A stretch of DNA of 42,828 nucleotides from Candidatus Schekmanbacteria bacterium (GTDB lineage: Bacteria > CSSED10-310 > JACPHN01). Positions 9,886 to 42,308 of the stretch are shown here, in pieces; the stretch's first letter is position 1, and each line of letters starts with the position of its first letter. A program made the position numbers and the translations under genes. The notes under the pieces were generated by a model. The model did not search any database. It saw only the letters and a program-made list of their open reading frames with translations, and had not been told where the DNA came from. The stretch covers positions 1 to 42,828 of the forward strand of contig JACPHN010000213.1 in NCBI GenBank assembly GCA_016188575.1. The letters run 5' to 3'.

Positions 9886-10704
9886 TCAGCTCCGCAGCAC
9901 ACAGCTCAAGCGGATCATGGTGCGAGCGTAGCGATCCAGGCGCTCGCGAACCGCCCGCCGCTCCTCCCGCGTGAGCTCCGTCAGCTCGTCGATGCCGGCC
10001 AGGCGCGCCTGCACGTGCGCGAGCAAGCGGCGTGAGGCGGCGCTCCGGGCCGCGAACATCCGCACCTCTTCGTCCAGGATTTCCTGTAGAATTCGCTCTT
10101 CCAGTGCCGACAGCTCCCGTTGGAGAATCATGTCGCCCAGGGCCTCGGCGCGCACCGCCGCCTCCTTGGCGCGCAGCCGCCGCCGTAGCCGCGCGGCTGC
10201 CTGCCGTACCAGCCGGTTGTCTTGCCAGAGTCGCGCGGCAGCGCCGAGCCGTCCGAGCGCCGCGGCGAGCAGCCCGATCGCCAGGCCACTGGTGACCAGC
10301 GAGCTCAGCCGCAGATCCAGGCGGCCATAAAGCGCCAGCGCGCCCACCATGACGATCAACGGCGCGTAGGCCCCCACAGCGGTCCAGCGCGCCCGCACCT
10401 CGGCGCCGCAGCGCTGCATGATGGCCGCCGCGGAGGGGATCGCGCCGCCCTCTTCGGGCAGGTCCGTCGCCGCCAGCCACGCGCGGCACAGCGCCACCGA
10501 GGCGAACGGCGCGGTGGCCAGGCCACTGACCAGCACGAGGTACCAGGGGATGACCGGCAGGATCGGCGGCGTGAGGACCGTGATCAGCTCCGCCGGCAGT
10601 ACCAGCAGGCTCGCGGCGACCCGCCAGCCCGCGCTAGCCAACCCGGCCACCAGCGCGTGCACGGGAACTCCCAGGCTGAGGCCAAGAACCAGCGTCGCAC
10701 TCAT
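9886..10704 (-). CDS. Integral membrane protein with cytoplasmic helical tail
   Basis: The ATG at 10704 gives 272 residues; the open frame continues far upstream but runs antisense to the phosphodiester glycosidase gene and is not protein-like. The first 150 residues contain four to five hydrophobic segments (for example MSATLVLGLSLGVPVHALVA, then WRVAASLLVLPAELITVL, then PLIVMVGALALYG). The last 110 residues are a charged helical region rich in Arg, Glu and Leu, probably a cytoplasmic coiled coil. A G-rich GGCGGGG stretch directly precedes the ATG; a GTG at 10746 is an alternative start. It is probably cotranscribed with the helical protein downstream. No family recognised. Confidence 0.6.
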   Translation of the reverse strand: MSATLVLGLSLGVPVHALVAGLASAGWRVAASLLVLPAELITVLTPPILPVIPWYLVLVSGLATAPFASVALCRAWLAATDLPEEGGAIPSAAAIMQRCGAEVRARWTAVGAYAPLIVMVGALALYGRLDLRLSSLVTSGLAIGLLAAALGRLGAAARLWQDNRLVRQAAARLRRRLRAKEAAVRAEALGDMILQRELSALEERILQEILDEEVRMFAARSAASRRLLAHVQARLAGIDELTELTREERRAVRERLDRYARTMIRLSCVLRS

Positions 10705-11085
10705 CCCCGCCGTGAACGCCGGCAGCGCACGACCCGGGCGGGCCACACCGCGAGAGCGCAAGGCAGTGCCTTTCCCCGAATACCCTGCCCACTCGCCGTC
10801 GCCGCGACAATTCCCCCCTCCGTACCGCCCCCCGCTTGTGGATGGAGGTGAGGTGGGCGGCCTTCGTGAGGTACGTTCCGCGGCCGCCGTGGCCGAGTAG
10901 GTAGTGGCCGGACGCATCGATTCGCTGCTGGATCCAGTGAGCACTTCGCGCCCTCCAGGGACAGTGCGGCAACGCCAGCCTTGGCCTTGCGAGGACCCTA
11001 CTGTACACTGGTGTGCCGCGCGTTTCAGTTCCTCTCCGGTCCGGCCGTCGCGCGCGGCCTGCTGCGCGACGGTACAGAAAGCCTT
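10705..11085. other. Divergent intergenic region with palindromic repeat
   Basis: About 380 bases between the minus-strand membrane protein and the plus-strand phosphodiester glycosidase, so it should carry both promoters, though none can be placed with confidence. A dispersed repeat unit lies at about 10811-10863 (CCTCCGTACCGCCCCCCGC, then the tail GGAGGTGAGGTGG at 10844-10856). Confidence 0.5.
10811..10863. repeat. Dispersed palindromic repeat unit, intergenic copy
   Basis: CCTCCGTACCGCCCCCCGC is followed by the tail GGAGGTGAGGTGG and GGCCTTCG. It has the same tail orientation on the plus strand as the copies inside the PKS genes, so it shows the element outside coding sequence. Confidence 0.65.
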
Positions 11086-11925
11086 ATGTCGGGACTCGTC
11101 ATGATTCTCATGCTTGCCGCGGGTGGCGCTGCTCCGCTTCAGGCTGCGGGTTGGATCGAGCTCGCGCCGGGAATCGACTGGCGCGAGCTCACTCCTACCG
11201 GCACGCCCGCCGCCGGCGACGCTGCGATCGTGGCCATTCGCGTGGACCCGGCGGCCTGGGAGCTGTTGCTGCTCTATCCAGACCAGCACAAGGACGCGCC
11301 CGCGCGCACCGCGCGCCAGTGGGCCGACGCTCACGGCCTGGCCATCGCGACCAATGCCGGCATGTTCGCCACCGACTACCGCACGCACGTGGGTTACATG
11401 GAGTCGCGCGGTCACGTCGTCAGCCAGCGCTTCAACAGCTACCAGTCGGTCGCCGTCTTTGACCCGTCGCGCGCTGGCCGCGTCCCGCCTTTTCGCATCG
11501 TCGATCTCGATGTTCTCGGCACGACGCTGGAATCCTTACGGCGAGACTATTCATCGATCCTGCAAAACCTCCGCTTGATCAAGCGGCCGGGCATCAACAA
11601 GTGGAACCAGCAGGACAGGGCATGGAGCGAGGCCGCTCTCGCGGAAGATGCACAGGGCCGCATTCTCTTCCTATTCTCGCGGGCGGTGCTGGCCATGAGC
11701 GATTTCAATCGCGAAATCCTGTCCGCGGGGATCGGTGTCGTTGCGGCTCAGCACCTTGAAGGAGGTGCCGAGTCCCAGCTATTTGTGCGGCTCGGCGACT
11801 TCGTCATGGAGCTCTCCGGGAGCTACGAAACGCCGTTTGGACCGGGCGACGACAGCCCGCCAGCCTGGCCGATCCCCAACGTCCTCGGCATCAGACGCCG
11901 CGGTGCGGCGGCTCCGGGCCGGTAG
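11086..11925 (+). CDS. Secreted phosphodiester glycosidase family protein (NAGPA/DUF2233-like)
   Basis: Starting at the ATG at 11086 gives 279 residues; an earlier ATG exists but the extra 35 residues are not protein-like. Residues 2-22 form a signal peptide (LVMILMLAAGGAAPLQAAG). The segment LAIATNAGMFATDYRTHVGY matches the NAGPA family signature, in which an N-A-G-(M/F)-F core follows a beta strand. RIVDLDVLG and a late VVAAQHLEGGAESQL segment fit the remaining fold. The human relative uncovers mannose-6-phosphate; bacterial members act in the periplasm or outside on sugar-phosphate diesters. Substrate unknown. It is the only plus-strand gene between 262 and 38529 and converges on the end of the PKS locus. 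Confidence 0.75.
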   Translation: MSGLVMILMLAAGGAAPLQAAGWIELAPGIDWRELTPTGTPAAGDAAIVAIRVDPAAWELLLLYPDQHKDAPARTARQWADAHGLAIATNAGMFATDYRTHVGYMESRGHVVSQRFNSYQSVAVFDPSRAGRVPPFRIVDLDVLGTTLESLRRDYSSILQNLRLIKRPGINKWNQQDRAWSEAALAEDAQGRILFLFSRAVLAMSDFNREILSAGIGVVAAQHLEGGAESQLFVRLGDFVMELSGSYETPFGPGDDSPPAWPIPNVLGIRRRGAAAPGR

Positions 11926-13208: not shown

Positions 13209-16200
13209 TCAGGGTGAGATCTTCAGCTCTTCGGCGACGCGCCCGGCGATCGCCGCGACCGTGGGATTTTCGAGCGCCAGCGTGTTCGGCAGCTCAACCC
13301 CGAACGCGGCGCCCAGAGAGGCCGCGAGGTCGACGGCCAAGAGCGAATCGAGACCGAGAGCATCGAGGTATTGCTCACGGGGGATCGCGAATCCTTCCTG
13401 GAAGCCCAGCAGGTCGCGCAGCACCGCTTCGATCGTCGCGGTGATCGAGGCCAGGGAATGCGCCGGCAGCGTGGTGCCCGGGCGGGCGCCCAACGGAATC
13501 CGGCGAATGTGCAGGCCGTGCGCTTCCGCGAGAAGATTCCCGGCGTCGTCCATGACGCTCAGCTCGACCTCGATCGCCTCCGGACTCGGCTCGCTGATCG
13601 TCGCATGGCACCACGCCGCCGTCCATGCCGGGCGGTGAAGCACAAAGCGATCGACTCCCGCGATGAGCATGCGCGCTGGGGCACCGCCGGAGAGCGCCGC
13701 TGCCGCCGTCTGAAAGCACGCATCGAGCAACGCGGGATGCACCACGAATGGATCTGGCGGGAGTCCGGCCGGAAGCTGGACGTAAGCGAGCGCCTCATGG
13801 CGGCCGGCGGCAAGCTCCGTGACCGCGTGAAAGGCCGGGCCGAGCGCGATTCCGTGAGCCTGAAGCAGCTCGTAATGGGCGTCCACCGGGACGGCCGTGC
13901 GGCATCGGCGGCGCACCTCGTCTAGCTCGGCCGGCCGCGCCGAGACTCCAGGTTCTGGTCCGCTCAGAGTCGCGGTCGCGTGCCTCATCCAGCCCGCCGA
14001 CAGCGTGGCACGCGCATGGAATCGCGCGGTGCAGCCCGAGCCTGCGGCAGGGTCCCGGCGCACGGCGACCTGCACAGAAGCGGGTGAGCTCGGCGACAGG
14101 ACCAGCGGCTGGTCGATGGTCAGTTTCGCGACCGTGGTGGCCGGCGGATCGAGGTGCTTGCCCACGGACAGCAGCGCTTCGACGAATGCTGCCGCGGGAA
14201 ACACCACCTCTGTGCCGACGCGATGGTCGGCCAGAAACGGTTGCGCATGCAAAGAGACTTCGCCGTGGGCGACGCTCAGGCCCTCGCAGTCCGCAACCGG
14301 GATCAGCTCGGCGAGGAGAGGACGGTGCGGTGTGGCGGACCGCACCGCGGGCACGACGGTTTGCGACAAGTCAATCCAGAGGGGTTCCCGCTGCCAGGGG
14401 TACGGCGGCAGAGAGACCACTCTTGCTGCGCCCTCCGCGAATAGCGCCGACCAGCGGGGGTTGGCGCCGAGCTCATAGAGGTGGCCGAGCGCCCGGCGGA
14501 GCGCCGTGGGAGCGTCGACGTCCGGGCTCGCGAGGGGGTCCACGAACGGGCACGAGACTGGCTCGTAGGCTGGCGACGTGGTGGCGCTCGGCAGCAAGTG
14601 GAGCACGACCTCGTGGCCGCGGGGCTCTGCCGCGGGCGCACCGGCCGCCAGCGCTATCGCCGTCATGCCAGCGGGGACCCCGGCGACTCTGCCGCCCTCC
14701 CTGCCTCCCCCCGCCTGCGGGGGAAGGTCAAACGCCGCGCCTCCCCCCGCCTGCGGGGGGAGGCAAGGTGGGGGGTCCTGAGCGAGCACGAGCCGGGCCG
14801 ACTCCGCCAGCGAGGCCTCACCGGCGACAAGGCGAGCCGCGGCGGCGCCCTGCCCGTCCGCCGTGACGACCGCCGGCTCGACGCCCCACGACCGCCACAG
14901 CGCCGCAAGCGCGACTTCTGTCGCCCAGGATACGCGCGGGTCCGAGGTCGCCGCCTCTCGCAACCGAACGGCGCCGCCCCAGACCTCCGCCAGCGCGGCC
15001 TCGCACCGCTCAAAGGTCGCGCGAAACGCCGCTTCGCTCGCCAGCAGGCCGTCGAGATGAGAGCGTCGCGGGCTGCTCCCGGAACAGTGAAACGCGATTC
15101 GCGGCGCCGAGGTCATGCCGCGCGCGAGCTCGGCCGGCTCGGTGTCACTACCGGCCGCCAACAGCGCGACCAGATGCTCGCGCGACCGGGTGGCGAAGGC
15201 GCGGCGGAACGCGTGGTGAGCGCGGCGAACGCAGGCCGTGTAGGCGATGTCTGCGAGGCTCGCCTCAGCCAGCGGCCCGCGCCCGTCTCGCAGCGCCCGC
15301 TCCAGCGCGCGCGATGAATCCGCCAGCGCCGCAGCGGTGCGCGCGGAAAGCGGAACGACGAAGGGGCGTTCGTCCAGAATCGCGGGTGGCACCGGGGCCG
15401 ACTCCTGATGGCAAGCGTCCGCAATGACGACGTGCGCATTGGTGCCGCTGATTCCGAAGGAGCTGATTCCGGCGACGCGCGGCGCCGAGCGCGCCGGAGG
15501 CTCCCATGCTCGTGGCGAAGTCGCGATTTCCAGGCGCGTTCCCTGCAAGTGAATCCGCGGATTGAGCTGCTGGAAGTTGATCTGCGGCGGGATTCGCGCA
15601 AATCGCACGGCGAGGATGGCCTTGATCAGACCGGCAATGCCGGCGGCGCCTTCGAGGTGCCCGATGTTGGCCTTGACCGAGGACACCGCGCAGCGCTCCG
15701 CGTCCTTGCTTGCTGCCCCGAAGACCTCGCATAGTGTCTCCATTTCGATTGGGTCTCCGAGCGGTGTCGCGGTACCATGCGCTTCGATGAGCCCCACCTC
15801 AGGTGCGGCGATGCCACCGTCCGCAAGCGCCCGATTGATCACTGCGCGCTGCGCCAGCCCGTTCGGTGCCGTCAGGCCGGCGCTGCGGCCGTCGTGATTT
15901 ATCGCCGTGCCGCGAATTACCGCCCAGACCCGATCCGCGTCGCGCACCGCGTCTTCAAGGCGCTTGAGGACCACGACGCCGACGCCCTCGCCGCGGACGT
16001 ATCCATTCGCCTGCCCATCGAACGTCCGGCACCTCCCGTCCGATGACAATGCCCGCATTCGCGACAGGCGCACGAAGCCTTCCGGCGAGAGCATGGCGTT
16101 CGTTCCGGCGACGAGCGCCGCATCGCACTCGCGCGCGCGCAACGCCCGCACGCCCAAATGCACCGCGACAAGCGACGACGAGCAGGCGGTGTCCACAGTC

Positions 16201-16790
16201 AGACAGGGCCCCTCGAGTCCGAAGACGTACGACACGCGCCCGGCCAGAATGCTGGCGAGTCCGCCCGTCAGCGTGTGCGCATCAGCGACGATGCCGCGGA
16301 GCGTCTGAATTTCCTCATAGTCGTGGCTGCACGCGCCGACATAGACCCCGGTGCGACTTCCCTTCAGGGTGCCCGGCACGATGCCGGCATCCTCGAGCGC
16401 CTCCCACGAGACCTCGAGAAGGATGCGCTGCTGGGGATCCATGCGCGCGGCCTCGTGGGGCGAAATCTCGAAAAACTGGGCATCGAAGCCCGCGATCTCA
16501 TCAAGAAAGGCGGCGTGGCGCGTGCAGCTCTTTCCGGGCGCGGCAGGATCCGGGTCGTGATAGTCCGCGATGTTCCAGCGAGTTGGCGGGACTTCCGTTA
16601 CGGCGTCGTAGCCGTCGAGCAGCCGCTGCCAAAAAGCGAACGGATCATTTGCTCCTCCCGGAAATCGGCACGACATCCCAACGACGGCGATGGGTGCCGG
16701 TGATCCGAGCAAGGCGCGACAGAGGAGCTCCCGTTCGGCGGACGACAGCTCCGCCACCAGATCGTTTACCACGTGCAGCATGTCACTCAT
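13209..16790 (-). CDS. Type I PKS, module 3: KS-(degenerate AT)-DH-ACP
   Basis: A predicted 1193-residue protein. The KS spans residues 33-460, with active Cys203 (DTACSSS), His338 (EAHGTAT) and His378 (NIGHLE) intact. Where the AT should lie (about 564-800), GHSxGE is replaced by ADGQGA (644-649), so the catalytic Ser and His are gone, and the FPGQG motif has become FHCSG. Residues 671-700 are a palindromic-repeat insertion. Normal later AT landmarks (RSxLM, the specificity motif near xASH/HAFH, PHPxL) are missing. The DH follows (about 820-1100) with His856 and Asp1023. The ACP (about 1115-1190) carries Ser1149 in LGLDSL. There is no KR, ER, thioesterase or other release domain. The ATG at 16790 is two bases past the stop of the preceding gene; a TTG at 16796 would overlap it. 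It may work with an AT supplied in trans, or be a dead end. Confidence 0.9.
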   Translation of the reverse strand: MSDMLHVVNDLVAELSSAERELLCRALLGSPAPIAVVGMSCRFPGGANDPFAFWQRLLDGYDAVTEVPPTRWNIADYHDPDPAAPGKSCTRHAAFLDEIAGFDAQFFEISPHEAARMDPQQRILLEVSWEALEDAGIVPGTLKGSRTGVYVGACSHDYEEIQTLRGIVADAHTLTGGLASILAGRVSYVFGLEGPCLTVDTACSSSLVAVHLGVRALRARECDAALVAGTNAMLSPEGFVRLSRMRALSSDGRCRTFDGQANGYVRGEGVGVVVLKRLEDAVRDADRVWAVIRGTAINHDGRSAGLTAPNGLAQRAVINRALADGGIAAPEVGLIEAHGTATPLGDPIEMETLCEVFGAASKDAERCAVSSVKANIGHLEGAAGIAGLIKAILAVRFARIPPQINFQQLNPRIHLQGTRLEIATSPRAWEPPARSAPRVAGISSFGISGTNAHVVIADACHQESAPVPPAILDERPFVVPLSARTAAALADSSRALERALRDGRGPLAEASLADIAYTACVRRAHHAFRRAFATRSREHLVALLAAGSDTEPAELARGMTSAPRIAFHCSGSSPRRSHLDGLLASEAAFRATFERCEAALAEVWGGAVRLREAATSDPRVSWATEVALAALWRSWGVEPAVVTADGQGAAAARLVAGEASLAESARLVLAQDPPPCLPPQAGGGAAFDLPPQAGGGREGGRVAGVPAGMTAIALAAGAPAAEPRGHEVVLHLLPSATTSPAYEPVSCPFVDPLASPDVDAPTALRRALGHLYELGANPRWSALFAEGAARVVSLPPYPWQREPLWIDLSQTVVPAVRSATPHRPLLAELIPVADCEGLSVAHGEVSLHAQPFLADHRVGTEVVFPAAAFVEALLSVGKHLDPPATTVAKLTIDQPLVLSPSSPASVQVAVRRDPAAGSGCTARFHARATLSAGWMRHATATLSGPEPGVSARPAELDEVRRRCRTAVPVDAHYELLQAHGIALGPAFHAVTELAAGRHEALAYVQLPAGLPPDPFVVHPALLDACFQTAAAALSGGAPARMLIAGVDRFVLHRPAWTAAWCHATISEPSPEAIEVELSVMDDAGNLLAEAHGLHIRRIPLGARPGTTLPAHSLASITATIEAVLRDLLGFQEGFAIPREQYLDALGLDSLLAVDLAASLGAAFGVELPNTLALENPTVAAIAGRVAEELKISP
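14691..14780. repeat. Dispersed palindromic repeat inside PKS module 3 AT
   Basis: Two palindromes (CCTCCCCCCGCCTGCGG type) are followed by the tail GGAGGCAAGGTGGGGGGTC. Read on the minus strand it gives residues 671-700, with PPPCLPPQAGGG then LPPQAGGG, in frame with the PKS. It sits where the normal AT sequence ends. Confidence 0.85.
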
Positions 16791-16792
16791 CT

Positions 16793-23775
<6,983 letters not shown>

Positions 23776-23779
<4 letters not shown>

Positions 23780-26700
23780 CGCGTGTTCCTCTCGTCGGAG
23801 GTGGCGCCGAGCTCGGCCGCCAGGAGCGCCGCCAGATCCGCGTCGGACAGGCCCCGCAGCTCCCGCGCCGCGGCGTCGTCGGCCTCCGCGTTGGCGTCTC
23901 GCCCCGATTGCTGCGGCTCCAGCAGCGTCATCAGGTGTTCCGCCAGCGCCGACAGCCGCGGATAGGTCCACGCCAGGCTCGCCGGCAAGCGAACCCCAAA
24001 GCCCGCCTCCAGGCGGTTGCGCAGCTCCAACCCGATCAGCGAGTCCAGGCCCAGGTCTACCAGGTTCGCCGTGCGGCGGATCATGCTTTTTTCGATCCGC
24101 ATCAGGCTCGCGACTTCGGTCTGCAGGACGGTCTCGACGGTGGCGATGCGATCCCCCGGCGCCGCCGCGTTCACCAGCGCGAGCAGGCGACGGCGATCCG
24201 CGGGGGCACCGGCCACCGCCGTTGCTTCGGTCGCGAGGATTTCGGCAAAGAAGGCCGTCGTCGCCACCCCGGGATAGTATTCCACCCACTGCCGCGCAGC
24301 GAACGCGGCAACGGAGATCTGGGCGGGAGCGGGTGCGCCGAGGATGTCGCCGAGATGGTCGCAGGCCTGTTCCGCGGTAATCGCGCCCATGCCGCGGGCG
24401 GCGAGCCGAGCGCCGCGGTCCGCTCGCGCGGCGGCCAGACCGACGTCGGAAATGGCGCCCCAGTTGATGCTCGCGCCGGCCAGGCCCGCCTGGCACCGGT
24501 AGTGCGCAAGCGCGTCCAGGAAGGCGTTTGCCGCCGCGTAGTTGCTCTGGCCCGGTGACCCGATCGTCGCGGCTACTGACGAGCACAGCACGAACAGGTC
24601 GAGCTCGCGATCCCGCGTTGCCGCATGGAGGTTCCAGGCACCGCGCACTTTCGACGCCATCACCGCGCGCAGCCGGTCGCGGTCTTGCTGCTCGATGAGG
24701 GCGTCGTCCAACGTGCCGGCCGCATGAAATACGCCTCGCAGCGGTGCCGGCGAGGCCCTTACGGCGCGCTCCACCTGGTCCGGGTCGGCGACGTCGCAGG
24801 CGAGCACCGTAACCCCGGCACCCAGCGCCCGGATCGCGGCCACCGCCTCCGCTTGCGCCGGCATTGACGCGCCCCGGCGCCCGATCAGGACAAGCTCCCG
24901 CGCTCCGCGCTCCACCAGCCAGCGAGCGAGCTTGAGGCCCAGCCCGCCGAGCCCACCGCTGATGAGATAGCTTCCATCGCTGCGGATTGTCATCGGCGCG
25001 CCAGCGAATGCGCCGCCGGGATAGCCGCGCACCAGTCGCGCGACGAATCGCTGCCCATCGCGCAGCGCGACGTGCCTCTCCGGCCCGCCCGCAGCAATCT
25101 CGGCCGCCACCAGCCGCGCTTCGTCAGGCGACACTGCCCCGTCGCCAGGAGCGAGGTCGACGCAGGTGCACGAGAGCTCCGGATGCTCATAATGGAGCGT
25201 CTGCGCGATTCCCCAAAGCGGCGCAGCGAGCAACCGAACGGCCGCGTCACCGTTCCCGACAACCTGGGCCGCGCGCGTCACCACGACGAGCCGCGGAACA
25301 TCTCGGACGGGAAGCGCCGACAGCGTCCGCGCGAGCTCCATCAGCACCTCGCAGCTCAGCAATACGGCATCTTCCACAGCCTCGACCGGCGTCTGAACGT
25401 CGACGTGCCCGTGCAGAGCGGTCAAATCAACGACACCGCGCAACGGCGGTTCGCCGGACGCCAAGGCGAGATTGCCCACGCGCGCCCCCAGAGGTTCTGC
25501 AAGCGTATCCGGAATGATCGTCTCAACCGCGCAGCCGTGCGCTGTCAGATGTTGCGCCAGAGGATGCGCTGCGTCTTCCACAGGGGCGACCAGAAGCCAG
25601 CGACCTGAAAGCTCGCCGTCTTTCGCAGGAAGCGGGGCGGGCCGCCAGCGGACGTGCAGCCACTGGCGCCCGGCGGCGCCCACGGACTCCCGCCCGCCTG
25701 ACATGCGCACCAACCGCAGTCCCGAGACGGCCATCATGGTATTTCCGTCGTCGTCGAGGAGCCGCACGTCTGCCACCCAGCCGGATGCCGCGCCGTCCGC
25801 CTCCGCCGCCGCTGCCGCCCGCAGCACCGCGTGGGTCCAGCAGGCACTTGCCGGCAGCTCGTAGACCGCAACCGCGCCGATGTGAGCGGGCACCAGCGCC
25901 TCGCCTCCGCCGCCCCGCAGGACGGCAGGTGCGGCCGCCGCGTGCAGCGCCGCGTCGAGGAGCGCGGGATGAACGGAAAAACCCGTTTCCGAGCACATTC
26001 TCGGGAGCTGAGCTCGCGCCAGCACCTCGTTTGGCCCGACCCACAGACGCTCGATACCTTGAAAGGCAGGGCCATACTGCAGGCCGCGTGACGCCAGTGC
26101 CGCGTAGTAATCCGGCCCCGCCAGCGGTGCACCTGTCTGGAGATCCGCGATCGCTACGCGCGGCAGCGAGGGTGCGCCGGAGACGGGCCGCCGCGCTCGC
26201 GCGCGCACGTGCTCGGTCCACGCCGCTTCGGCCACGCCTTCCCCGCCATCCCGGCCGAAGAGCCGAACGGTGGCCTCCAAGCCACCATCCCTGCCTCTCC
26301 CCGCACGCGGTGGGAGGTTGTAGGTATCGGCCGCCCCTCCTCCCGCACGCGGGGGGAGCTGAGGTGGAGGGACCTCGCGATGCACCTCCCACGCGACTTG
26401 AAGCACTCGGGGCTCGTCAGAGTCAAGGCGCAGCGGCAGCGGGAACGCGACGTCCTCGAGGATGACGGCGGCGCCTGGGTCGAGCTGCCTGGCGGCGGAG
26501 ATGATCAGCTCCAGGCTGAGAGCTGCCGGAACGATTACGTCGCCGGCCACACGGTGGTCCGCGAGCCAGGGGTGGGGAGGGATCGCGAGCTCGCATTCCC
26601 AGGTGCGTAGATTTGGGCACGCGGGGCTATAGTGCGCTCCGGACAGCAGCGGGTGGTTGCGCGGACCCCGCCGTCGCGCGGCTGGCGCCGCAGCCAGGGC

Positions 26701-29700
26701 GCTTTCGTCCAGCCAGTAGCGTTGCTTTTGCCACGCGTACGGCGGGAGATCCACGACGCGACCGCCTCCCGGAAACAGGGCACGAAAATCCAGCGACACG
26801 CCCCGGGAAAAGAGCGCCGCCGCGGCCAGCAACAGCGCAGCACGCTCGTCTTCGCCGCGCCGCAGTGAACCGATGACTGTCCCCTCGATCCGCGCTTCGC
26901 TCAGGCCGTCGGCGATCGCCGCCGTCAGGACTGGGTGTGGGCTCATCTCGACGAATACCGTGTGGCCGCTTTCTGCCAGGGAGCGCACCGCGCCGGCGAA
27001 GCGCACAGGTCGGCGCAGGTTGTCCGCCCAGTAGCCCGCGTGGAGCTCTTCGCCCGGCTGCCATTGCAGCGATACCGTGGAGAACATCGGCACACTTCCG
27101 CCGCGCGGCGCGAGGCCGGCCAGCGCCTCGCACAACAGCGGGCGGAGCGGTTCCATTTGCGGGCTGTGCGAGGCATAGTCCACGTTGACCCAGCGACAGA
27201 ATACACCCTGGTCCTGCAAGGTCGCGAGTGCGCGCTCGAGCGGCGCGCGCACTCCGGACAGCACGCACGAGCGCGGTCCGTTGCTGACTCCGACGGCAAC
27301 CTCGCTCTCCAACTCCGCTACCGCTGCCTGCGCTTCGTCCCAGGAAAGCTCCACGACCGCCATCGCGCCGTTACCGCTGGCGTGCTGACGCGCAATCCGA
27401 CTGCGCAACGTGATCACTCGCGCGGCGTCCTCGAGGCTGAGAGCACCCGCAACGCACGCCGCGGCGATTTCGCCCATGCTGTGGCCGACCACGGCGTCCG
27501 GCCGCACGCCCCACGAGCGCCACAGCTCCGCCAGCGCCACTTCCATGGCCCAGAGCACCGGCTGCACCACGTCGTTCTCTGCCAGACGCGAGCGGGCCTC
27601 GTCCGCCCCCAGCTCCTCGCGGAGCGACCAGTCCACGAATGCGCTCAGCGCCTGCTCGCAGGCCTCGATGCCACGGCGAAAGACAGGCTCACCAAGGAGC
27701 AATCCGCGGCCCATCCCGACCCACTGAGATCCCTGACCCGGAAAAACAAAGGCGATCCTGGGTGGATCGGCGAGAAGCTCGCCCCGCCGCATCGAGGGGT
27801 AGTCCGTATCCGCGGCGAGCGCATCCAGGCCGGCGGCCAACGACTCTCGGGTTGCTCCGACGACGCCCGCTCGATGCTCGAGAGCGGTTCGGCGCAACGC
27901 CGCCGTGTAGCAGAGATCTTCCAGCGGGACATCGGCCCGCTCGGGCTGGCGGATCCAGGTCGCCATCTGTCGCGCGTTGTCCCGTAGCGCTCCCGGCGTT
28001 CGCCCCGACAAGGGCAAGAGCACGGAATCCGGGTGCGGGAGAGGTCGCTCGGCGCCGCGCACGAACAGGGCGCTGCGCGCCTGCAGCAGCGGCACGCGCT
28101 CATCGCCCGAGCGGCGCATCGTGGCCAGCGCGGTGCCCTCGATGCCCGCTTTGGCCATTGCCTGCTGCAGCGAATACGAGATCACCGGGTGGGGTCCGAT
28201 CTCGACAAACAACCGATACCCATCCGCGAGCAGTGCCTGGACGGCCTGGTGGAAGCGAACCGGTTGCCCCAGGTTGCGCACGAAGTACTGCCCGTCAATC
28301 GCGGCGGCGCTCACCCGCCCGCCGGTAACCGTGGAATAGTAGGCGGCCGCACCCCCACCGGGCGCACACCAACGAACGCTCCGCAACGAGGCTGCGAGAT
28401 CGTTCAGGTACGGAGTCACGAGCGGGCTGTGACCGGCGACATTGGTGCGAATCGGAGCGTGGTCGACGCCGCGGATACGCAAGCTCTCCAGGATAGCCGA
28501 CACCGCCTCGCGCTCGCCGCTCAGGACTGTGGACCGGCTGTCGTTGATCGCCGCCACCACTACTTGCCCCGAATAGCGCTGCAGCTCGGCCGCAAGCTCA
28601 TCGGGGGCAAGCTGGACGACCGCCATGGCGCCGCGTCCGGCATTCGGCCTTTGCACGCGAGCGTAGTGGTGCATGACGGATGCGGCGGTAGGCAGGTCGA
28701 GGATTCCGGCGATGTGGGCGGCCGCGGGCTCGCCAGCGCTGTGGCCGATCACGGCGTCAGGCTCGAAACCCCAACTCCGCAGCAGCGCCGCAATCGCGAC
28801 CTGGATCGTGAAGAGCAGCGGCTGGACATACACGACATCGTCCAGGCGGGTGTCGTCAGCGTCAGGCGCGGTCAGCGCCTCCAGCACGGACCACCCCAGG
28901 AGCGGCCGGAACGCTTCGTCGCAGCGCGCCAATGCGACGCGGAATGCCGGTTCCGTCGCCGCCAGCAGCCGGCCCATCCCCCGCCACTGGCAGCCGAGCG
29001 GGGAGCACACAAAGACGACTGGCAGGCAGGCACTTATGCTCCCCTCCTGACCGCCCTCCGCTTGCGGTGGGTGGTGAGGTGGGAGGTCCTCGGCGCAGAT
29101 TCCGTAGCTCGTCCCCTCCGGGGTTTCGCCCTGCGCGAAGGCGCGAAGGAGGCTCTCGGTCTCGTGCGCGGAGCGGGACACGAAGGCGAGCCGGTGTGGC
29201 CCATGCGCGCCGCCTTCGCCGCGTACACCGACCAGCCCGCCACCGGCCTCGCTGGCGACGCAGGCCGCGGCCGCACGCTCGCGCAGCTCGGCCGCGCTCG
29301 CCGCCGCCAGACCGACCCACCGGGGATCGGGCGGCGCTCCCTCCAACACCACGTGGGCGTTGGTTCCTCCCCAACCGAAAGCGCTAACCCCGGCGATGGC
29401 CGGCTCAGCGGCAACACCCGGCCATGGTTCGCATCGAGTGGGGATGCAGACCCCGAGCTCCGCAAACGGGATGTGGGGATTGGGTTGCCGGAAGTGCAGA
29501 CTGGCCGGAACCGCGCGGTGCCGCATCGCCAGAATGGTCTTGATGAGGCCGGCGACGCCGGCGGCGCCTTCGGTGTGGTTGATGTTGGTCTTGACCGAGC
29601 CGAGCCACAACGGCCGGCCGTCTTCGCGATCCCGGCAGACGACCTCGCCGAGCGCCTTGACCTCGATAGGATCGCCCAGAAACGTGCCGGTGCCGTGCGC

Positions 29701-30933
29701 CTCGACGTAGTCGACGGCGCTGCCGGGAATCCCGGCGCGGCGATACGCGAGGCGCAGGACCGCCTCCTGCGCCGCCGGATTCGGCGCGATAAGCCCCTGG
29801 CTCTGCCCATCGTTGTTTACCGCGCTGCCGCGAATCACGCACAGGACGCGGTCTCCGTCGTGGCGCGCCCGCGACAGCGCCTTGAGCACCACGACGCCGC
29901 CCCCCTCCCCGCGCCCGAACCCGTTGCCGCCGGCGTCAAACGCCTTGCACCGTCCATCCGGCGACAGGCCGCCGAACTTGGTGCAGAACACCATGGATTC
30001 CGGTGCCAGCAAGACATTCACGCCCCCGACGACCGCGAGGTCGGCGTCGCCATACCAGAGCGACTGACAGCCGTGATGCAGCGCCACCAGCGCCGAGGAG
30101 CAGGCCGTATCGATAACGGCGCTGGGGCCGCGCAGGCCGAACACATAGGATACCCGGTTCGCGATCAGGTTATTGGAGATTCCCGTGGCGCGATGGGCGC
30201 TCATCGTCTGCACGGCTGCATGCGTGATGTCCGCCCAGTCGTGCCACATCGACCCGAGAAATACCGCCGTGCGACTGCCGCGATAGCTCGCCGCCGGGAT
30301 CCCCGCGTCTTCCAACGCTTCCCACACCAGTTCCAGGGCCAGACGCTGCTGCGGATCCATCTCTTGCGCCTCGCGGGGCGAGATGCCGAAGAAGAGTGGG
30401 TCAAACAGCTCCACGCCCGCGATGAAGGCCGCCCGTCGAGTGTTCGTGCGCCCCGGCGCCTCCGGATTCGGACTGTAGTAGGCGTCGACGTCCCACCGCT
30501 CGGGCGGTACCTCGCCGGTGGCGTCGATTCCTTGCCGCAACAGCCGCCAGAACGCCGCCACGTCCTCGCTTGCCGGGAAGCGGCAGGCCATGCCGATGAT
30601 CGCAACCGGCTCGCCGGTGGCGCGAGGGGAGTCGCAAGCAGCGGCGGGCGCCACCGCCGCCGTTTCCGCTGGCGTGGCGAGAAAATGCGCCAGAGCGCGA
30701 ATCGTCGGGTATTCCCACAGCACGGTCGGCGACAGTGGGCGGTCCAACAGCCCGGACATTTCGCGCACCAAACCGACGAGCTGGAGCGATGAGAAACCAT
30801 ACCGGGAAAGCTGCTCGCCGTCGTCGATTTGGGTCGGTGCGACGCCGGCGACGCGGGCGACGGCCTGTCTTAGCCAGCTCTTGAGCTCGTTGGGCCGGTT
30901 GGCATCGGGGAGTGCGGCCGGGTGCTGAGGCAT
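23776..30933 (-). CDS. Type I PKS, loading plus module 1: ACP-KS-AT-AT-DH-KR-ACP
   Basis: A predicted 2385-residue protein and the first PKS gene transcribed. Loading ACP about 15-90, Ser49 in YGFSSLQL. KS about 107-535: Cys278 (DTACSSA), His413, His453; the usual NIGH is NINH (450-453). First AT about 638-950: divergent FVCSPLGCQW entry, Ser732 in GHSAGE, VAGH at 832-835. Second AT about 1058-1370: FPGQGSQ, Ser1152 in GHSMGE, YASH at 1253-1256, typical of methylmalonyl. DH about 1425-1745: His1460 and Asp1660, with a repeat insertion at 1520-1550. KR about 1985-2170: GGLGGLG, Ser2119 and Tyr2132, LDD as in B-type. ACP about 2255-2335, Ser2298. A C-terminal docking helix follows (LSDADLAALLAAELG). 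Known precedent: the ACP-KS-AT-AT order occurs in myxobacterial loading systems such as stigmatellin, where the first AT loads the starter onto the N-terminal ACP. Confidence 0.93.
26284..26376. repeat. Palindromic repeat insertion inside PKS module 1 DH domain
   Basis: Two palindromic units (CCCCGCACGCGGTGGGAGG and CTCCCGCACGCGGGGGGAG) are followed by the tail GAGCTGAGGTGGAGGGACC. It encodes residues 1520-1550 (PPPQLPPRAGGG, then NLPPRAGRG), between the catalytic His1460 and Asp1660 of the DH, apparently in a surface loop between beta strands (WEVHRE before, ATVRLFGRDG after). Confidence 0.85.
29041..29095. repeat. Palindromic repeat insertion between KS and loading AT
   Basis: The unit reads CCGCCCTCCGCTTGCGGTGG, then GGTGAGGTGGGAGGTCCTC. 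It encodes about residues 614-632 (EDLPPHHPPQAEGG) in the KS-AT linker of the first PKS protein, in the same frame as the other three intragenic sites. Confidence 0.75.
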
Positions 30934-33782: not shown

Positions 33783-33830
33783 GTACCTGTTCACCTCCTC
33801 CCCGCTTGCGGGGGGGACGGGGATGGAGAT
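33783..33830. repeat. Palindromic repeat carrying the kinase ribosome-binding site
   Basis: CCTCCTCCCCGCTTGCGGGGGGGACGG at 33794-33820 is a copy of the dispersed palindrome, between the end of the RND gene and the chimeric kinase. On the minus strand its tail is AGGAGGTGAACAGGTACG, which supplies the ribosome-binding site. The same GGTGAACAGGTACG recurs at about 6360-6373. Confidence 0.65.
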
Positions 33831-41851: not shown

Positions 41852-42308
41852 CGGCGCGCCGCGCCCCCTCTCTCCCCCCGCTTGCCCGGGGCGACCGGGT
41901 GGGGGGAGACTGGCAGTGGAAGCGGCGGTGGATCCTGGTTCGCAGCAGCGGCTTCCAACTCTTCTCGCGAACCGCCGCGATCGCACCGCGAAACTCGGGC
42001 CAGCGCGGTCTGCATGTCCGTGCGGCGACCATTTCTGGCGATAGCGGCGGCAGCTCGGGGTGCTCATGCGTCCGGTCGCCCAGTAATTCCACGGGGCACT
42101 CTTCATCCGCGCAGTTGTCGACTCGAGGGCGGTCCCCCTGGCGAGGAGACGACTGTACCGCCTCGCGACGGGGGCATTCGCAACGGCGGCAAGGGACGAG
42201 GCGCGCCCTGAGCTGCGCTCGGCAGTCCGAAAGCAGCGCGCGGACGGACGGCCGCATCAGGGCGTAGGGCAATCTCGTCAGGCAAACCCTTATGACCTGC
42301 GCGCCCAG
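41852..42308. other. Region without a clear gene; carries one palindromic repeat
   Basis: About 450 bases. A dispersed repeat copy lies at 41863-41910 (CTCCCCCCGCTTGCCCGGGG, tail CGGGTGGGGGGAGAC). From 42087 one plus-strand frame is open through to 42650 but has no start codon before 42309. A minus-strand open frame (41589-42689) covers the whole region and looks like a shadow. I cannot decide whether a short gene lies here. Confidence 0.4.
41863..41910. repeat. Dispersed palindromic repeat unit after the PKD gene
   Basis: CCTCTCTCCCCCCGCTTGC is followed by GGGGCGACCGGGTGGGGGG. It begins about 12 bases after the PKD protein stop, a typical intergenic position for this element. Confidence 0.6.

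What the first reader, a model, noticed from the sequence alone, without database searches (positions are those of the whole stretch)
13209..30933. A palindromic repeat has entered three PKS genes at four sites, always in the same reading frame
Insertions at 14691-14780, 19820-20032, 26284-26376 and 29041-29095 share the palindrome CCTCCCCCCGCnTGCGGGGGGAGG and the tail TGAGGTGGGnGGTC with intergenic copies (10811, 33794, 41863). All four have the same orientation and yield the peptide core PPPxLPPxAGGG without a stop or frameshift. They fall in a KS-AT linker, a DH loop, the DH/pseudo-KR linker and a dying AT. This suggests a mobile or amplifying element that is tolerated as a protein linker, as known for some repeats such as the Rickettsia palindromic elements.
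Basis: partly seen in the sequence, partly recalled or inferred. Interest (0 to 1): 0.85.

Follow-up and report, generated by a model that had tools for sequence, protein, structure and literature searches.

The report
Mobile palindromic element inserted in PKS genes
A short hairpin-shaped jumping element, present at roughly 500 places in this one bacterium's genome, has inserted at four linker positions in its three polyketide-synthase genes without breaking the reading frame, a clear new example of mobile DNA turned into pieces of protein.

Summary
The palindrome is the core of a mobile element: complete copies are about 140 bp (about 176 bp with two palindromes), with inverted ends CCTGAATCCACCGCCTG...CAGGCGGTGGATTCAGG. 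They carry 4-bp target-site duplications (14 of 45 exact; permutation mean 0.6, maximum 5). I estimate about 500-540 sites genome-wide and found none in 385 other genomes. Four aligned right ends, three beside IS1380-family transposase remnants, match the element's terminal 10-13 of 13 bp, so it is most likely an IS1380-mobilised MITE; no intact transposase was found. Most copies are intergenic (147 of 177 hits). Twelve well-supported intragenic insertions lie in 2.49 Mb, four in these PKS genes, a density close to intergenic. PKS homologues lack the insert cleanly at three of the four sites. 'Same frame' is not a rule: two antisense frames occur genome-wide, and one sub-copy here uses the other. 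Orientation is firmer: 11 of 12 are antisense to the gene, partly because that strand has fewer stops. A new element of a known kind.

The parts
10775..10910 (+). near full-length intergenic copy of the element (reference copy inside the window)
   Evidence: profile hit at model positions 1-130, 68 bits, with degenerate terminal repeats; falls between called genes 9886-10746 and 11011-11925
14683..14780 (+). two-palindrome core copy inside PKS gene A, in the degenerate AT region; read antisense as QDPPPCLPPQAGGGAAFDLPPQAGGGREGG
   Evidence: compared with homologues (about 100 aa of AT also missing there); codon score negative in the insert and positive on both sides
19797..20035 (+). composite insertion in PKS gene B: a 180-bp two-palindrome copy with both terminal repeats (19797-19976) plus a partial third copy (19977-20035); at the DH/pseudo-KR linker
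   Evidence: four homologues lack the ~80 aa; 239+4 bp is a multiple of 3
26281..26376 (+). two-palindrome core copy inside PKS gene C, within DH between the two hot-dog halves; read antisense as PPPQLPPRAGGGAADTYNLPPRAGRG
   Evidence: absent from 12 homologues
29035..29103 (+). single core copy inside PKS gene C, in the KS-AT linker immediately before AT1; read antisense as EDLPPHHPPQAEGGQEG
   Evidence: absent from 12 homologues
33786..33826 (+). degenerate intergenic palindrome core with the alternative 'CTGTTCACC' flank
   Evidence: not reported by the profile
41863..41937 (+). degenerate intergenic relative ending in GCGGTGGATCCTGG, similar to the terminal repeat
   Evidence: not reported by the profile
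13209..16796 (-). PKS gene A: KS, degenerate AT, DH, ACP
   Evidence: Pfam; no GHSxG motif
16793..23779 (-). PKS gene B: KS-AT-DH-pseudoKR-ER-KR-ACP, similar to mycocerosic acid synthase
   Evidence: Pfam; PDB 9d2y
23776..30933 (-). PKS gene C: ACP-KS-AT-AT-DH-KR-ACP
   Evidence: Pfam; homologues

Best explanation
The repeat is a miniature inverted-repeat transposable element (MITE). A complete copy is about 140 bp: inverted ends beginning CCTGAATCCACCGCCTG around a GC-rich hairpin; a form of about 176 bp has two palindromes. Shown: it transposed, leaving 4-bp target-site duplications, and reached roughly 500 sites in this genome. Inferred: an IS1380-family transposase, now seen only as decayed remnants with nearly the same terminal 13 bases, moved it in trans. 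Most copies survive between genes. A copy landing inside a gene survives only if it keeps the frame. Complete copies often do, because 140+4 and 176+4 bp are multiples of 3 and the antisense strand usually has open frames. The result is a Pro/Gly-rich peptide of tens of residues. The PKS genes have kept four such copies at linkers, a loop and one decayed domain, where the proteins presumably tolerate them as spacers. Inferred: the copies lacking terminal repeats (14.7, 26.3, 29.0 kb) are trimmed remnants of full insertions.
For: Transposition: exact 4-bp duplications in 14 of 45 copies with both ends (permutation mean 0.59, maximum 5 in 10,000 trials); flank identity 0.61 at length 4 versus 0.21-0.32 at other lengths. 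Copy number: 158 sites in 2.49 Mb, about 500-540 extrapolated; 218 palindromes with at most 2 mismatches genome-wide. IS1380: family predicted from the 4-bp duplication and CCT ends, then found; four aligned right ends match CCTGAATCCACCG at 13, 12, 11 and 10 of 13 bases and lose homology at the terminal base. A complete in-gene copy: metallophosphoesterase gene, C162:71498-71673, 176 bp with exact CGCC/CGCC duplication, 176+4 divisible by 3, coding signal on both sides. PKS: homologues lack the inserts at three sites; inserts score as non-native codons; all three genes remain open.
Against: No intact transposase was found, and three of four PKS inserts lack recognisable terminal repeats and target duplications. 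The palindrome core also occurs next to unrelated repeats, so it may move or be copied separately. The composite PKS insert has no clean target duplication (GAGC/AGGC). The IS end that matches all 13 bases (L040) has no transposase hit of its own. No close relative was available to show the empty site in the same gene.
Confidence: 0.85

Rival explanations
1. The palindrome core (~54 bp) is itself an independent mobile or copied hairpin of REP type. The 140-bp element is a composite that captured it, and the TIR-less PKS copies came from the core rather than from trimmed MITEs.
For: Many cores have unrelated flanks (44 intergenic cores unclassified). The core adjoins a second dispersed repeat, GCGACACTTGTAAAGGAGCATCACCCGACATTCGGC, which also occurs alone. 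Two-palindrome forms have spacers of variable sequence. Six of twelve intragenic copies retain only the core.
Against: No transposition signature was found for bare cores. Eight Y1-type transposase genes exist but those read look like IS200 TnpA; three of eight loci have an element nearby on one side only.
Confidence: 0.25
2. The inserts are native low-complexity Pro/Gly-rich linkers of the PKS proteins that resemble the repeat only by composition.
For: Pro/Gly linkers are common in multidomain proteins, and the inserts sit in linkers or loops.
Against: The DNA similarity is specific: no shuffle matches, and the gene B copy differs from the intergenic consensus tail at 1 of 32 positions. Homologues lack the segments. 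The codon score drops in the inserts. Another gene contains a complete copy with an exact target duplication.
Confidence: 0.03
3. The PKS cluster is decaying, and the inserts simply accumulate there as they do in intergenic DNA.
For: Element density in the PKS genes (4 per 17.7 kb) is close to that in non-coding DNA (about 146 per 377 kb) and about 59-fold above other coding DNA. The AT of gene A has lost GHSxG and about 100 residues.
Against: All three genes (1195, 2328, 2385 aa) remain open with coding signal throughout, and every insert is in frame. Neutral insertion would usually shift the frame.
Confidence: 0.2

Closest known systems
Rickettsia palindromic elements (RPE; Ogata et al. 2000, as described in PMC10969869)
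   Same: ~150-bp palindromic elements, many inserted in frame in unrelated protein genes as added peptides.
   Different: Here terminal repeats, 4-bp target duplications and a candidate mobiliser are identified. Most copies are intergenic (147 of 177 hits), whereas nearly half of RPEs lie in ORFs according to the review. Sequence and host differ (no RPE sequence was compared), and the hosts here include large multidomain PKS genes.
IS1380-family insertion sequences and the MITEs derived from ISs
   Same: Terminal bases CCTGAATCCACCG nearly shared with local IS1380-type ends; 4-bp duplications, within the 4-5 bp that I recall for the family (IS1247 gives 5 bp, PMC3281130).
   Different: No transposase; internal hairpin unrelated to the IS; copies outnumber the decayed IS remnants by more than 100 to 1.
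REP/BIME elements with RAYT transposases
   Same: Short GC-rich palindrome, hundreds of mostly intergenic copies, paired palindromes with a spacer.
   Different: Has long terminal inverted repeats and target duplications; no RAYT gene flanked by the repeat was found.
ERIC / enterobacterial repeat units (PMC2759123)
   Same: 127-168-bp MITE-like repeats with open frames, sometimes fused to genes.
   Different: Several of the enterobacterial fusions described are terminal or in small ORFs; here the insertions are internal to large enzymes with flanking domains on both sides. No sequence comparison was made.

Membership tests
MITE | short, non-autonomous, multicopy | tested here: met
   modal length 140 bp, no transposase ORF, about 500 sites
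MITE | terminal inverted repeats | tested here: met
   20-bp perfect inverted ends in the consensus, extended by CCT/AGG
MITE | target-site duplication | tested here: met
   4 bp, 14/45 exact versus 0.59 expected
MITE | ends shared with an autonomous IS in the same genome | tested here: inconclusive
   four right ends, three beside IS1380-type remnants, match 10-13 of the terminal 13 bp; no intact IS and no left end seen
IS1380-mobilised element | ends begin CC(T/G) and duplication of 4-5 bp (own knowledge of the family) | tested here: met
   CCTGAATCC ends, 4-bp duplication
IS1380-mobilised element | moved in trans by an IS1380 transposase | not testable with these tools
   needs a transposition assay; only decayed transposase genes were found
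Rickettsia palindromic element | in-frame insertion in unrelated protein genes | tested here: met
   twelve well-supported internal cases in 2.49 Mb
Rickettsia palindromic element | sequence homology to RPE families, Rickettsiales host | not tested
REP/RAYT system | a RAYT transposase gene flanked by the repeat | tested here: not met
   eight Y1-type genes; three have an element on one side only, five have none in the fetched flank

The most novel reading that the evidence does not exclude
This MITE is a protein-compatible element: selection has favoured copies whose length plus duplication is a multiple of 3 and whose antisense strand lacks stops, so that it can live inside genes and act as a recurrent source of linker peptides in large modular enzymes such as PKSs. 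The evidence allows this but does not show it: 15 of 33 single-palindrome copies fit a multiple of 3 (about a third expected), and 9% of random local intergenic 133-mers have at least as many open frames as the consensus.
Probability: 0.15. Interest if true: 0.8.

Novelty: new member of a known kind. Interest (0 to 1): 0.55.

Why it matters
In-frame palindromic repeats in protein genes are best known from Rickettsia, and a recent review calls the extent of their contribution to protein evolution unexplored (PMC10969869). This element comes with terminal repeats, target duplications and a candidate transposase family, so the origin of such peptides can be tested directly. It also indicates that multidomain megasynthases can retain several insertions at linkers, which bears on where PKS proteins can be extended.

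Tried and rejected
Rejected: chance similarity; the idea that every insertion shares one frame (one search shows two antisense frames genome-wide, and 19977-20032 in the window differs); a REP/RAYT origin. A general preference for PKS genes cannot be tested, because the window's three KS genes are the only large modular PKS genes found in the genome. Two apparent internal insertions, C239:50881 and C239:115698, were dropped after checking coding signal: the element only extends a gene end there.

Searches of the paper library found no report of this element or of MITEs in bacterial PKS genes; the library is incomplete.

Full report
Observation. The palindrome CCTCCCCCCGCNNGCGGGGGGAGG occurs in the three PKS genes at the stated places, with no match in 100 shuffles. 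All copies are antisense to the PKS genes, whose frames stay open. The insert in gene B is larger than stated (19797-20035) and composite, and its last sub-copy is read in another frame.

What the repeat is. In the window's own genome (9.2 Mb, 275 contigs) the palindrome with up to two mismatches occurs 218 times. Aligning copies shows a larger element. Its consensus has 20-bp perfect inverted ends and folds into one long hairpin. Flanks extend the ends by CCT and AGG. In 2.49 Mb of sampled genome, 45 copies have both ends; the commonest length is 140 bp, and a second group of about 170-200 bp has two palindromes.

It transposed. The 4 bp on either side are identical in 14 of 45 copies; shuffling right flanks among copies gives 0.59 on average and at most 5 in 10,000 trials. 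Flank identity is 0.61 at length 4 and 0.21-0.32 at lengths 2-3 and 5-9. This is the signature of a 4-bp target-site duplication.

Candidate mobiliser. A 4-bp duplication and CCT ends pointed to the IS1380 family (my own knowledge of that family), so I searched for PF13701 before knowing the answer. Four hits mark three decayed copies; one sits at a contig start and one has an in-frame stop. Their right ends, plus a fourth at L040:2483, align with each other and lose homology at the terminal base. Read inwards they are CCTGAATCCACCG (L040), CCTAAATCCACCG (L163), CCAAAATCCACCG (L165) and CCTAAATTCACTG (L164), against CCTGAATCCACCG in the MITE: 13, 12, 11 and 10 of 13. The perfect match, L040, has no transposase hit of its own. 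I call the link likely, not shown. The Y1 transposases that I read look like IS200 TnpA; three of eight loci have an element on one side.

Distribution. Unbiased sampling extrapolates to about 540 sites, large contigs to about 500. A 32-bp tail pattern with up to three mismatches is found in none of 385 other genomes, an exact 30-mer in none of the GTDB r220 genome contigs, and an exact 28-mer in none of the viral contigs; the window's own record may be left out of the last two. Seven genomes of the same phylum have none, but none of them is close.

Coding versus non-coding. I called genes with a simple codon-usage method of my own, so boundaries are approximate. Of 177 hits, 147 are intergenic, 11 overlap gene ends and 19 lie inside genes. 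After checking coding signal on both sides, 12 internal events remain: 4 in the PKS genes and 8 elsewhere. Non-coding DNA carries about 0.39 sites per kb, other coding DNA about 0.004 and the PKS genes 0.23. Against the other-coding rate, four or more in 17.7 kb has P = 8e-7. The locus was chosen because of the inserts, so this overstates the case; correcting for some 1,600 genes leaves about 1e-3.

Frame and orientation. The consensus is stop-free in five of six frames, including all three antisense frames. Across intergenic full-length copies, antisense frames are open 2.42 of 3 times and sense frames 1.42 of 3. Eleven of 12 internal events are antisense; one-sided P is 0.003 against 50%, 0.012 against 57% and 0.031 against 63%. 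Intergenic copies between co-directional genes also lean antisense, 42 to 23. Two antisense frames are used: the PPPxLPPxAGGG frame and a PPTSPPPASGGRDGG frame. Four main PKS copies in one frame is therefore not remarkable.

Insertion into existing genes. Homologues on plasmids of Streptomyces, Kitasatospora, Burkholderia, Methylosinus, Nostoc, Dolichospermum and Eleftheria lack the segments at both sites of gene C, and four homologues lack the segment in gene B. In gene A the surrounding AT domain is itself reduced, so the comparison is less clean. The clearest single case is outside the window: a 176-bp two-palindrome copy in a metallophosphoesterase gene with CGCC on both sides, 176+4 being divisible by 3.

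How it works. Shown: transposition with 4-bp duplication, amplification in this genome, in-frame presence in genes, absence from homologues. Inferred: mobilisation by an IS1380 transposase; trimming of terminal repeats after insertion; tolerance of the peptide as a spacer. The family looks old: the best copies are 93% identical to the consensus and the candidate transposase genes are decayed.

Comparison. The biology resembles Rickettsia palindromic elements, described in PMC10969869 as ~150-bp elements making in-frame fusions, and enterobacterial repeat units (PMC2759123). By its anatomy it is a MITE. What is new is the element, its host and the PKS setting, not the kind of phenomenon.

Noticed in passing
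window 23776-30933 (gene C): Two acyltransferase domains in tandem; the first has VCSPLGCQW in place of the usual GQGSQW, a variant close to a Streptomyces homologue (L170, FVCSPYGQQW), so it may be a distinct AT type rather than a decayed one.
   Followed up: partly
window 13209-16796 (gene A): The AT domain lacks the GHSxG motif and about 100 residues compared with homologues, leaving a KS-DH-ACP module that may depend on another AT.
   Followed up: partly
C162:105735-105806, L035:11002-11069, L026:3613-3681, L032:15485-15540 and others: A second dispersed repeat, GCGCCTGCGACACTTGTAAAGGAGCATCACCCGACATTCGGC, with about 19 hits in 2.49 Mb, with or without the palindrome beside it.
   Followed up: partly
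L045:12518, L110:1631, L161:6459, C102:144223, C177:71162: A third repeat around TTCGGGAACCCTCCCACCGCCTGCGGCGGCGGGCGCCGCCC, with a different palindrome.
   Followed up: no
L095, L100, L102: Three of eight Y1-type (IS200-like) transposase loci carry an element copy close by on one side; possibly chance.
   Followed up: partly
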